From a virus: DNA of 36,150 nt. Under the pieces are notes generated by a model. That model worked only from the letters and a program-made list of their open reading frames with translations. It did no database searches and was not told where the DNA came from. Shown piece by piece: positions 11,516 through 19,566 of the stretch. The first letter of the stretch is position 1. Each line of letters begins with the position of its first letter. The stretch lies in IMG/VR virus record IMGVR_UViG_3300028864_000011, positions 1 through 36,150 of that record. The stretch is one strand, 5' to 3'. The translations under genes and the position numbers were made by a program.

Positions 11516-12640
11516 TTATTCGTTGCTATCGTCAGTTTCTACAAACTTCTTATCAACTACTTTATACCACTGGTCAGCTTTAATTTTTTTATCATCAACT
11601 TTAGCAGATAAAACACATAAAGGTTTAGCATCTTCAAAATTATATCCCTCTTTCCATTCAGCAATAACAATCCAAGAACCTAGTGATGCTTTAGCTTTAG
11701 CTTTTCTTCCTATAGAACAAGCAATCGCATCGCTCGTTGAAGTAGCGGAGTGAGCACCATAGCCAGAAGTAGCGGAGTTAGCACGATTGCCAGAAGTAGC
11801 GGAGTGAGCATATTCGCCAGAAGTAGCGGAGTGAGCATCATTGCCAGAAGTAGCGGAGTGAGCATATTCGCCAGAAGTAGCGGAGTGAGCATCATTGCCA
11901 GAAGTAGCGGAGTGAGCATCATTGCCAGAAGTAGCGGAGTGAGCACCATGGCCAGAAGTAGCGGAGTGAGCACCATAGCCAGAAGTAGCGGAGTGAGCAT
12001 ATTCGCCAGAAGTAGCGGAGTGAGCACCATGGCCAGAAGTAGCGGAGTTAGCATCATTGCCAGAAGTAGCGGAGTGAGCATCATTGCCAGAAGTAGCGGA
12101 GTGAGCACCATAGCCAGAAGTAGCGGAGTGAGCACCATAGCCAGAAGTAGCGGAGTGAGCACCATGGCCAGAAGTAGCGGAGTGAGCACCATGGCCAGAA
12201 GTAGCGGAGTTAGCATCATTGCCAGAAGTAGCGGAGTGAGCACCATAGCCAGAAGTAGCGGAGTGAGCATATTCGCCAGAAGTAGCGGAGGTATTTTTGA
12301 AAATTGATTTTTTAGACGCTTTGTTCCAAATGAAATCAACTGATGCTTTGACTAAAGCCGGTAAGTCTAATTTAGCGGTTATTCTAATACCGTCTGTGAC
12401 TGATTTATTTTCGTCATCTTGAACTTTTCCAAAAGCTTCAATGATGCCAAACTCAGTCAATTTATTATTTTGTAGCAATGGATAATAAGTAAGTATATCT
12501 AATGGGTTTTTACAAAAATGAAAACCATTTGAACAAATACCAATTTCGCCATCCAATTTATAATCTTTTCCAATCTCATATTGGAAGTCCCTACATTTTA
12601 ATCCCCCATTAAAGGCTTTGTAGCCAATTACTTTTTTCAT
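11516..12640 (-). CDS. Nonapeptide-repeat protein (DUF7666-like ends, 20 SATSG repeats)
   Basis: Encodes 374 aa in three parts. Residues 1-115 (YKAFNGGLKCRDFQYEIGK, GICSNGFHFCKNPLDIL) match a phage/bacterial family that I believe is catalogued as DUF7666. Residues 118-297 are 20 tandem nonapeptides of the form SATSG-x-x-A-H/N, where x-x is EY, YG, ND, HG or NR, followed by a final SATS. Residues about 308-374 (IGRKAKAKASLGSWIVIAEW, DQWYKVVDKKF) are the family's C-terminal part. The repeats should fold as a regular beta solenoid. The family is known from many phages but its function is unknown to me. The ATG lies 9 bases downstream of a long leader hairpin. Repeat number is likely to vary between isolates. 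Confidence 0.8.
   Translation of the reverse strand: MKKVIGYKAFNGGLKCRDFQYEIGKDYKLDGEIGICSNGFHFCKNPLDILTYYPLLQNNKLTEFGIIEAFGKVQDDENKSVTDGIRITAKLDLPALVKASVDFIWNKASKKSIFKNTSATSGEYAHSATSGYGAHSATSGNDANSATSGHGAHSATSGHGAHSATSGYGAHSATSGYGAHSATSGNDAHSATSGNDANSATSGHGAHSATSGEYAHSATSGYGAHSATSGHGAHSATSGNDAHSATSGNDAHSATSGEYAHSATSGNDAHSATSGEYAHSATSGNRANSATSGYGAHSATSTSDAIACSIGRKAKAKASLGSWIVIAEWKEGYNFEDAKPLCVLSAKVDDKKIKADQWYKVVDKKFVETDDSNE
11738..12289 (-). repeat. 27-bp in-frame tandem repeat array
   Basis: About 20 tandem 27-bp units encode the nonapeptides of the 374-aa protein. The constant part (AGAAGTAGCGGAGT on the + strand) is nearly invariant at nucleotide level, while two codons per unit switch between five alternatives. 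Near-identity at silent sites indicates recent amplification or gene conversion. There are no CRISPR-like spacers. Confidence 0.95.
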
Positions 12641-12648
12641 AAATTTGT

Positions 12649-12711
12649 CGCTATTACGGTGGAGCGAGTGGCAGTAATCATAACTACTCGACTCGCACCG
12701 CCATAATAACG
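12649..12711 (-). promoter_or_regulatory. Long leader hairpin upstream of the repeat-protein gene
   Basis: Three stacked stems form one hairpin: 12649-12656 with 12704-12711 (8 pairs, one a G.U wobble only on the - strand), CGGTG with CACCG, and CGAGT with ACTCG, separated by 3-base bulges. The wobble supports an RNA made leftward. It ends 9 bases before the ATG at 12640, close enough to affect ribosome access. Confidence 0.55.
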
Positions 12712-12731: not shown

Positions 12732-12893
12732 TTAATGTTTTATTTTAAAATTTTCAATTATTAAATCCAACATCCCAGCTAAACTTTTCTTACCCTTAAT
12801 TTTTCTAATATATTCTAGATTATCAGGTTTAATTCCAATAGTTTTAGAATATTCACTTTTTTCCCAATTATTTCTATCTTTATTTTCTGACAT
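12732..12893 (-). CDS. Small RHH-like basic protein
   Basis: Encodes 53 aa, MSENKDRNN at the start and IKPDNLEYIRKIKGKKSLAG in the centre. Its leader ATTCAATATG fits the genome's start pattern. The central part resembles a ribbon-helix-helix DNA-binding protein (a short strand followed by two helices) such as small antitoxins or phage repressors, but the similarity is only by eye. It stands alone upstream of the repeat-protein gene with the 13118-13217 structured leader behind it. It may regulate local transcription. Confidence 0.5.
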   Translation of the reverse strand: MSENKDRNNWEKSEYSKTIGIKPDNLEYIRKIKGKKSLAGMLDLIIENFKIKH

Positions 12894-13117
12894 ATTGAAT
12901 AACTTTAATATATTTAACTAGTTCAACTTATTTAACTACTTCAAGTTGTTCCCTTTTCCTATGTTCTCTCTAACCCCAAGTGCTTGTCTTTAATCAGCGT
13001 TGTCCTAAGACTTGTTAAGCGTAAGTTTGGAGGTAGTGGAGATTGTAAAAGGGTAAAAGTATTGTTCCTCTTGTGATGATGAATCACTGGTTAAGCACGG
13101 GCTAGAGGTTAAAAAAA

Positions 13118-13217
13118 ATAGAAGTATGATTTTTAATTTATTCAACTGTTAGCCCCGCCAAGGTTCTAACTGTTGATATAAGCTAAAGCTCATACTTCTA
13201 TCTTATTGGCGGGGTTA
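13118..13217 (-). ncRNA. Interleaved inverted-repeat (pseudoknot-like) leader
   Basis: ATAGAAGTATGA (13118-13129) is a perfect 12-bp partner of 13190-13201. CCCCGCCAA (13153-13161) pairs with TTGGCGGGG (13206-13214) and extends by two or three pairs. The order is A-B-A'-B', so the stems are interleaved: either a pseudoknot or two mutually exclusive folds. A smaller GTTAG/CTAAC pairing (13148-13152 with 13166-13170) competes with the B arm. On the - strand the last arm is followed by eight T, so one fold looks like a terminator. The GC-rich arm stands out in a very A/T-rich region. Confidence 0.6.
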
Positions 13218-13230
13218 TTTAATTGATTAA

Positions 13231-13259
13231 ATTGTAAATCTTTTTATAGTTGGTGTCAA
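13231..13259 (-). promoter_or_regulatory. Leftward sigma70-type promoter
   Basis: On the - strand TTGACA (13254-13259) is 17 bases before TACAAT (13231-13236). The -35 overlaps an inverted repeat GGTGT-CA-ACACC that could be an operator. The predicted start near 13224 lies about 7 bases before the first arm of the structured element, so the transcript begins with that structure. Confidence 0.65.
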
Positions 13260-14097: not shown

Positions 14098-14457
14098 TTA
14101 AATTAATTTAGGTTGTGTTAATTGAGGTTTTAATTCTTCTAATGGCTTAATTTCATCTTGATAAGTAATGAACTCCATTGAACCATCAGGCATTTGTTTC
14201 CAGTCTCCCCTTACCTTAGGAGTTATTAGTCTTGGGTAGCTATCAGCGTTAACCTCTCCTTTAGACTTTAGCTCTAAGCCGTCTAAATCAGCCCCTACTT
14301 CAAGCAAGTTCTTCCAACGACTAAAGTTCCGATAAGCCATAACTAAATCAGTCTTGGCCCATTCTCCGCCCTCTAGTTTAAACTCTAGCCTAATAAAGTT
14401 TCCGCCATTACGGCTATATTTTGGTAAATGTATTTTTGTAATCGTTCCTTTAAACAT
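14098..14457 (-). CDS. Unknown early protein, possibly OB-like
   Basis: Encodes 119 aa beginning MFKGTITKIHLPKYSRNGGNFIRLEF. Alternating hydrophobic residues in the first 60 positions, separated by Gly/Asn turns, suggest a small beta barrel. The C-terminus is Pro/Gln-rich and probably disordered. This layout is reminiscent of single-stranded-DNA-binding phage proteins (barrel plus tail), but there is no acidic tip and I cannot name a family. It is the first gene after the strong promoter at 14631-14658 and its structured leader, which suggests it is made early. Confidence 0.55.
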   Translation of the reverse strand: MFKGTITKIHLPKYSRNGGNFIRLEFKLEGGEWAKTDLVMAYRNFSRWKNLLEVGADLDGLELKSKGEVNADSYPRLITPKVRGDWKQMPDGSMEFITYQDEIKPLEELKPQLTQPKLI

Positions 14458-14550: not shown

Positions 14551-14625
14551 CACAAAACCCGCAATCTGCTTGTTCAAGGCTTTGACCACGGGTTTTGTGC
14601 TTATATAATTTTAGTGCCTTGAACA
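14551..14625 (-). ncRNA. H-type pseudoknot-like leader at a transcript 5' end
   Basis: CACAAAACCCG (14551-14561) pairs with CGGGTTTTGTG (14589-14599), 11 bp. TGTTCAAGGC (14571-14580) pairs with GCCTTGAACA (14616-14625), 10 bp. The arms are interleaved, with connecting loops of 9, 8 and 16 bases, which is sterically reasonable for an H-type pseudoknot. The predicted start of the promoter 14631-14658 is near 14624, so the RNA would begin at the first arm. The first gene starts 94 bases after the element. Similar topology occurs at 13118-13217. Confidence 0.65.
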
Positions 14626-14630
14626 CTATA

Positions 14631-14658
14631 ATTATAACATTTTGATTTTAATTGTCAA
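14631..14658 (-). promoter_or_regulatory. Strong leftward sigma70-type promoter
   Basis: On the - strand a consensus TTGACA (14653-14658) is 16 bases before a consensus TATAAT (14631-14636). The -35 lies within the near-palindrome TAATTGTCAATTA, a possible operator. It should drive the genes from 14457 leftward. Confidence 0.75.
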
Positions 14659-19442: not shown

Positions 19443-19540
19443 GGTGGAATAGTGCAACGGTAGAACAGTGGGGTGGAGTAAATGGTTTACGCAAACTTTT
19501 GAAAAGCACCACCGACTTGGGTTCGACTCCCAATTCCTCG
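19443..19540 (+). tRNA. tRNA-like element with non-canonical anticodon region
   Basis: The T arm is canonical: TTGGG (19517-19521), loop TTCGACT, CCCAA. The D arm is nearly so: U8-A9, GTGC, loop AACGGTA with GG, GAAC (one mismatch). The acceptor GGTGGAA/TTCCTCG pairs at 5 of 7 positions, and no CCA is encoded. In place of a 17-base anticodon arm there are about 45 bases. GGTGG (19472-19476) pairs with CCACC (19509-19513), enclosing two mini-hairpins, GTAAA-TGG-TTTAC and CTTT-TGA-AAAG. No normal anticodon loop can be drawn. An upstream hairpin GGGAG/CTCCC (19422-19437) precedes it. It could be a mimic, an intron-bearing tRNA or a decayed tRNA. Confidence 0.45.
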
Positions 19541-19566
19541 TCAAGTTAATAATTAAACTTAAATTT

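What the first reader, a model, noticed from the sequence alone, without database searches (positions are those of the whole stretch)
13118..13259. Second promoter-plus-interleaved-repeat leader with 12-bp and 9-12-bp arms
TTGACA-17-TACAAT starts an RNA about 7 bases before four arms in A-B-A'-B' order. One arm pair ends in a T run and looks like a terminator, while the other is a GC-rich alternative. This could be a terminator/antiterminator switch or a pseudoknot. With the element at 14551-14625 it makes a repeated design in the same early block.
Basis: partly seen in the sequence, partly recalled or inferred. Interest (0 to 1): 0.7.

Follow-up and report, generated by a model that had tools for sequence, protein, structure and literature searches.

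The report
Phage early-gene RNA two-way switch
A phage's early genes carry a short RNA stretch, right after a strong promoter, whose start can pair with the loop of a terminator-like hairpin; the same layout with different letters sits in front of the DNA-replication genes of at least four (probably five) distantly related phages, so it looks like a real, undescribed RNA on/off switch, although nobody has yet measured it.

Summary
Neither matches Rfam. Searching distant relatives found the same anatomy (promoter, A, [B - A' in the loop - B'], T-rich tract) in L020, L023, L014, L090 and probably L022, each time at the head of the operon with the replisome-organiser gene, 16-28 nt before a start codon. 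Arm letters differ completely yet both helices persist; L014 and L022, found by gene position alone, pass independent shuffle tests. Folding predicts A:A' forms first (6 of 7) and the B:B' terminator hairpin is as stable or more stable once complete (7 of 7). Best reading: a promoter-proximal attenuator in which the RNA's own 5' end pairs with the terminator's loop. Not shown: transcription, termination, the trigger. A protein-binding pseudoknot leader, or for 13224-13110 a free small RNA, remain possible. Element 1 differs from the others: its next start codon is about 220 nt away.

The parts
13231..13259 (-). Promoter of element 1: TTGACA-17-TACAAT; predicted start about 13224
   Evidence: 11 of 12 consensus matches; read directly. 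Transcription not measured.
13206..13214 (-). Arm A (CCCCGCCAA), first arm, in the 5' tail of the RNA
   Evidence: Perfect complement of 13153-13161
13190..13201 (-). Arm B (ATAGAAGTATGA), 5' side of the long hairpin
   Evidence: Perfect complement of 13118-13129
13153..13161 (-). Arm A' (TTGGCGGGG) in the apical loop of the B:B' hairpin
   Evidence: Fold and duplex test: loop shuffles as strong in 1 of 2000; lead shuffles 209 of 2000
13118..13129 (-). Arm B' (TCATACTTCTAT), 3' side of the terminator-like hairpin
   Evidence: Fold -36.7 kcal/mol, z -7.1
13111..13118 (-). T8 tract after B' (terminator-like tail; its first T is the last base of B')
   Evidence: Read directly
12895..13108 (-). 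About 215-nt non-coding stretch between element 1 and the next ORF; can close a 15-bp helix (CTCTAGCCC..GTGCTT / AAGCAC..GGGTTAGAG) and holds a C-rich, G-poor run
   Evidence: Fold z -1.95, weak; composition. Whether it belongs to the element is not known.
12732..12893 (-). Next ORF downstream of element 1 (53 aa, no family match)
14631..14658 (-). Promoter of element 2: TTGACA-16-TATAAT with a TG before the -10
   Evidence: 12 of 12 consensus matches
14616..14625 (-). Element 2 arm A (TGTTCAAGGC)
   Evidence: Perfect complement of 14571-14580
14589..14599 (-). Element 2 arm B (CACAAAACCCG)
   Evidence: Perfect complement of 14551-14561
14571..14580 (-). Element 2 arm A' (GCCTTGAACA) in the hairpin loop
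   Evidence: Duplex test: 0 of 2000 lead shuffles and 2 of 2000 loop shuffles as strong
14551..14561 (-). Element 2 arm B' (CGGGTTTTGTG), followed by TATTTTG (weak T tract)
   Evidence: Fold z -3.6
14098..14457 (-). Gene downstream of element 2 (119 aa, no match; strand pattern resembles an OB fold but the model is unreliable, pLDDT 43)

Best explanation
Each element is a promoter-proximal transcription attenuator, a conditional terminator read co-transcriptionally. The nascent RNA begins with strand A. When A' emerges, A:A' pairs and holds B in its loop, so that the terminator hairpin B:B' cannot nucleate and polymerase reads on. If A is kept from A' (by a bound phage or host protein, a trans RNA, or because polymerase pauses long enough for the more stable B:B' hairpin to displace A:A'), B:B' forms and transcription stops at the T tract. 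In several relatives this gates the replication operon. In the window two copies sit in the early block. Shown: the sequence anatomy, its rarity, its recurrence at one genomic position in distant phages with unrelated arm sequences. Inferred: that promoters fire, that B:B' terminates, that the two helices compete. Unknown: the trigger.
For: Anatomy and rarity: no shuffled hit at the threshold reached by all four real ones; 0 of 600. Recurrence: a scan for promoter, A, then T-tailed hairpin with A' inside gives 6 hits in 274 kb of related phages against 2 in twenty shuffled copies, 0 in 199 kb of more distant phages and 1 in 429 kb of controls. Same place: head of the replisome-organiser operon in L020, L023, L014, L090 and probably L022, with 16-28 nt from B' to the first start codon. 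L014 and L022 were picked by gene position only: L014 beats all 300 shuffles, and in the duplex test 4 (lead) and 3 (loop) of 2000 shuffles match it; L022 4 and 0 of 2000. L023 and L014 organisers are homologous (36%), yet all four arms differ while both helices persist, including G-U pairs in L014. Folding order: A:A' is in the predicted fold before B' exists in 6 of 7, and B:B' is equal or more stable afterwards in 7 of 7. T-rich tract after B' in all.
Against: No RNA data. Element 2 and L023 have weak T tracts; element 1's next start codon is about 220 nt away. The arms do not overlap, so unlike textbook attenuators the two helices are not exclusive by sequence, only by geometry, and L020 and the window elements could hold both as a pseudoknot. 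L090 alone is not significant in the duplex test (about 0.06), L022 fails the ungapped score (59 of 300), and L095 at the same genomic position shows nothing significant (104 of 300). Thresholds were set after seeing the first members. Thermodynamic prefix folding is a crude stand-in for kinetics.
Confidence: 0.5

Rival explanations
1. A folded 5' leader (pseudoknot A:A' plus B:B' together) that acts after transcription: a binding site for a phage replication protein that represses its own translation, as T4 gp32 does on its mRNA, or a 5' cap against nucleases. B:B' is then not a terminator.
For: B' lies a narrow 16-28 nt before the start codon in five relatives, and these phages lack Shine-Dalgarno sequences, so a hairpin there could block ribosomes. 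Loops in element 1, element 2 and L020 are long enough for both helices. T4 gene 32 mRNA has an RNA pseudoknot that is the recognition site for autogenous repression (PMC535899).
Against: In L023 the A' helix (12 bp) cannot form fully inside a 16-nt loop, and in L023's second element the joining stretches are 2 and 0 nt. T-rich tract after B' in all members is not explained. Element 1 has no start codon nearby.
Confidence: 0.25
2. Element 1 is a free-standing, terminated small RNA of about 115 nt, with A or the A' loop as a site for pairing with another RNA; similarity to leaders of relatives is one of build only.
For: Best terminator of the set (T8, hairpin -36.7 kcal/mol); no ORF for about 220 nt downstream; C-rich non-coding stretch after it.
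Against: The other members sit directly before genes. No target found or sought beyond the window.
Confidence: 0.2
3. DNA-level feature (replication origin or protein-binding inverted repeats) next to replication genes.
For: Position near the replisome organiser in relatives.
Against: Two elements per genome in the window and in L023; fixed order promoter, arms, T tract on one strand; G-U pairs that keep the L014 helices in RNA but not in DNA.
Confidence: 0.05

Closest known systems
Pseudoknot riboswitches with transcription terminators (ZTP pfl, fluoride crcB)
   Same: A promoter-proximal leader in which an upstream strand pairs with a loop to make a pseudoknot whose persistence keeps a terminator hairpin from forming (PMC10687018).
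   Different: No Rfam match; no conserved sequence or aptamer core; A' lies inside the terminator's own loop and the arms share no bases; found in phage early and replication operons.
Antisense-controlled rep attenuators of plasmids pIP501 and relatives
   Same: Premature termination in the leader of a replication-initiator mRNA (PMC4981023).
   Different: No antisense RNA covering the leader was found. Element 2 has an opposite-strand promoter (TTGACC-16-TATAAT, 14582-14609) but it would overlap only arm A; element 1, L023 and L090 have none at 10 of 12 matches.
T4 gene 32 mRNA pseudoknot operator
   Same: Phage 5' leader with a pseudoknot before a DNA-replication gene (PMC535899).
   Different: T4's is about 28 nt with no terminator; ours is 75-115 nt with a T-tailed hairpin and a promoter at once upstream; the downstream genes are not shown to be single-strand binding proteins.
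HK022 put and lambda nut leader RNAs
   Same: Early-promoter leader RNA of a phage that affects termination (from general knowledge).
   Different: put is two separate hairpins, nut a small hairpin with boxA; none has interleaved arms (from general knowledge; not tested by model).

Membership tests
Known RNA families (Rfam 15) | Match to a curated covariance model | tested here: not met
   No match at gathering score in the window near the elements; nothing credible up to E = 10
Transcription attenuator / conditional terminator | Leader directly after a promoter | tested here: met
   11 and 12 of 12 promoter matches just upstream; predicted only
Transcription attenuator / conditional terminator | Terminator hairpin with T tract | tested here: met
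   Element 1 T8. Weak for element 2 (TATTTTG)
Transcription attenuator / conditional terminator | Competing structure that excludes the terminator | tested here: inconclusive
   A:A' predicted first, B:B' later; exclusion is geometric and clear only in some members
Transcription attenuator / conditional terminator | Measured condition-dependent read-through | not testable with these tools
   Needs in vitro transcription or RNA-seq
pIP501-type antisense attenuator | Antisense RNA over the leader | tested here: not met
   No opposite-strand promoter of 10 of 12 or better in element 1, L023, L090; one in element 2 covering only arm A, one in L020
T4 gene 32-type autogenous operator | Downstream gene codes for the single-strand binding protein that binds the leader | tested here: inconclusive
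   Gene after element 2 has no family match; model pLDDT 43

The most novel reading that the evidence does not exclude
A widespread, undescribed class of phage leader RNA in which the transcript's own 5' end pairs with the loop of the promoter-proximal terminator, evolving so fast in sequence that only its topology is kept, and used to time the replication operon in phages of hosts that lack Shine-Dalgarno sequences.
Probability: 0.4. Interest if true: 0.75.

Novelty: new variant of a known kind. Interest (0 to 1): 0.58.

Why it matters
If right, sequence-based and ordinary covariance searches miss a family of RNA switches because only the arrangement of pairings is conserved. It would give phages of uncultured hosts a way to time replication genes, and a simple test case of terminator control by loop capture.

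Tried and rejected
Rfam, gathering and E up to 10: nothing. Close relatives of flanking genes: none for the 119-aa and 169-aa proteins; the two contigs of the same virus (G001, G002) do not cover the early block. Phage GenBank DNA: no match. Relatives of the L020 organiser gene (mostly with Shine-Dalgarno sites): no element. L021 was first counted as a member, then set aside: it uses Shine-Dalgarno sites, has no clear promoter, and its arms lie in an ORF. L095: same genomic position, not significant. Structure models of the two downstream proteins too poor to use. Antisense-control idea: opposite promoters not consistent. Host: Patescibacteria suspected from protein style only; the L023 contig is binned with a Pacearchaeota genome; left open.

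Full report
WHAT IS THERE. The window is an IMG/VR phage record of 36,150 bases; a second contig of the same virus (G001) joins the window's end to its start, so the assembly is circularly permuted. Late genes run on the + strand on both sides of a minus-strand early block (8.8-18.2 kb), which holds an exonuclease, a LexA-like protein, a NinG-like nuclease and many unknowns. The finding lies in this block, on the minus strand. Reading 5' to 3': TTGACA (13259), 17 nt, TACAAT (to 13231), predicted start about 13224, arm A CCCCGCCAA (13214-13206), arm B ATAGAAGTATGA (13201-13190), arm A' (13161-13153), arm B' (13129-13118), then a T8 tract. A' lies in the apical loop of the long B:B' hairpin. The sister element has TTGACA-16-TATAAT (14658-14631), A TGTTCAAGGC (14625-14616), B CACAAAACCCG (14599-14589), A' (14580-14571), B' (14561-14551), then TATTTTG.

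IS IT MORE THAN CHANCE. Element 1 folds to -36.7 kcal/mol, z -7.1; element 2 to -25.5, z -3.6. The window has exactly two interleaved perfect pairs with at least three G/C in both arms; shuffles give 0.08. Promoter plus interleaved arms: two in the window, none in 600 dinucleotide shuffles. Rfam has no match.

RELATIVES. Flanking genes have almost no close relatives. The exonuclease led to distant phage contigs, about fifteen of them at 35-49% identity. In them a scan for 'promoter, A, T-tailed hairpin with A' in its loop' gave 6 hits in 274 kb: the two window elements, L020, L023, L090 and L021 (set aside, see below). Shuffles of the same DNA gave 2 hits in twenty rounds; 199 kb of farther phages gave none, and 429 kb of controls (Firmicutes-type phages, lambda, Tuc2009, Flavobacterium 11b, a Bacteroides phage, a Pelagibacter phage, other contigs of a metagenome bin) gave 1. 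In L020, L023 and L090 the element heads the operon that holds the replisome organiser. 'Replisome organiser' is my reading of the protein sequences and their place next to DnaB-type helicases; Pfam gave no hit for the L020 protein. I then looked at that same position in two further phages without scanning. L014 (read as L056, minus strand) has TTGCAG-17-TATAAT, A UUGCAGGCC, B GAACUCUCCAAG, A' GGUCUGCAA, B' CUUGGGGGGUUC, UUUUU, then the organiser's ATG; it beats all 300 shuffles. L022 has a T-tailed hairpin before its organiser whose loop pairs with the 5' lead in two blocks; in the duplex test 4 of 2000 lead shuffles and none of 2000 loop shuffles do as well, though the ungapped score is not significant. 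L095 at the same place is not significant. The L023 and L014 organisers are homologous at 36%, but every arm differs while both helices persist.

A UNIFORM TEST. For each member I compared the duplex energy of the 5' lead with the hairpin loop against 2000 shuffles of the lead and 2000 of the loop. Loop-shuffle counts: element 1 1, element 2 2, L020 10, L022 0, L023 6, L014 3, L090 129, L023's second element 15. Lead-shuffle counts are weaker for element 1 (209), L090 (108) and L023's second element (115). B' ends 16-28 nt before the first start codon in the five relatives that head the replication operon. In element 2 a 16-codon ORF begins 12 nt after B' and the 119-aa gene about 94 nt after; in element 1 the next ORF is about 220 nt away.

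HOW IT MOST LIKELY WORKS. Before B' is made, A:A' is part of the predicted fold in 6 of 7 members; once B' exists, B:B' is as stable or more stable in all 7. With the T-rich tract this is the behaviour expected of a co-transcriptional attenuator: A:A' first, holding B in its loop and allowing read-through; B:B' if A is kept busy or if polymerase pauses. The arms share no bases, so exclusion rests on geometry. In L023 a 12-bp A:A' cannot fit a 16-nt loop, and L023's second element has joints of 2 and 0 nt, so there the helices must largely exclude each other; in element 1, element 2 and L020 both could coexist as a pseudoknot. I therefore keep a protein-binding pseudoknot leader (as in T4 gene 32, PMC535899) as the main rival, and a free small RNA for element 1. 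Pseudoknot-against-terminator competition is established for ZTP and fluoride riboswitches (PMC10687018) and leader attenuation of a replication gene for pIP501 (PMC4981023), so the mode of action is of a known kind; the loop-capture layout, the phage setting and the lack of sequence conservation are what is new, as far as the searches here show.

LIMITS. All promoters, terminators and folds are predictions. Thresholds were chosen after the first members were seen; the independent part is L014 and L022. L021 was set aside because it uses Shine-Dalgarno sites, has no clear promoter and its arms lie in an ORF. The host is unknown: the window, L023, L022, L014 and L090 lack Shine-Dalgarno sites almost entirely and L020 mostly.

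Noticed in passing
window 14582-14609 (+): A strong opposite-strand promoter (TTGACC-16-TATAAT, 11 of 12) lies inside element 2 and would start a transcript antisense to arm A only.
   Followed up: partly
window 12940-13108 (-): Non-coding stretch after element 1 with a C-rich, G-poor run (rut-like) and a possible 15-bp closing helix.
   Followed up: partly
window 12652-12708 (-): A strong stem-loop (GTTATTATGGCGGTGCGAGT...ACTCGCTCCACCGTAATAGC) stands just before the start codon of the DUF7666 repeat gene (11516-12640).
   Followed up: no
window 11710-12307: The DUF7666 protein has a long run of near-identical short repeats (AHSATSG type), open in several frames; the second contig of the same virus breaks in this tract.
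   Followed up: no
L021:6501-6720: TTGACA-16-TAGAAT followed by about 175 nt of apparently structured non-coding sequence ending in a T7 terminator; looks like a phage small RNA gene.
   Followed up: no
L023 / JAFCGI010000007.1: A 38.6-kb phage contig is binned in GenBank with a Pacearchaeota genome; the same bin holds a second phage contig with the same exonuclease (G012:C38).
   Followed up: partly
L072:3101-3151: The control hit in the same bin contains TAATATTAC, the nonanucleotide of CRESS-DNA virus origins, in a 3.2-kb contig.
   Followed up: no
window 19443-19541 (+): Marginal Rfam tRNA match (29.9 bits against 29) that ARAGORN does not report.
   Followed up: no
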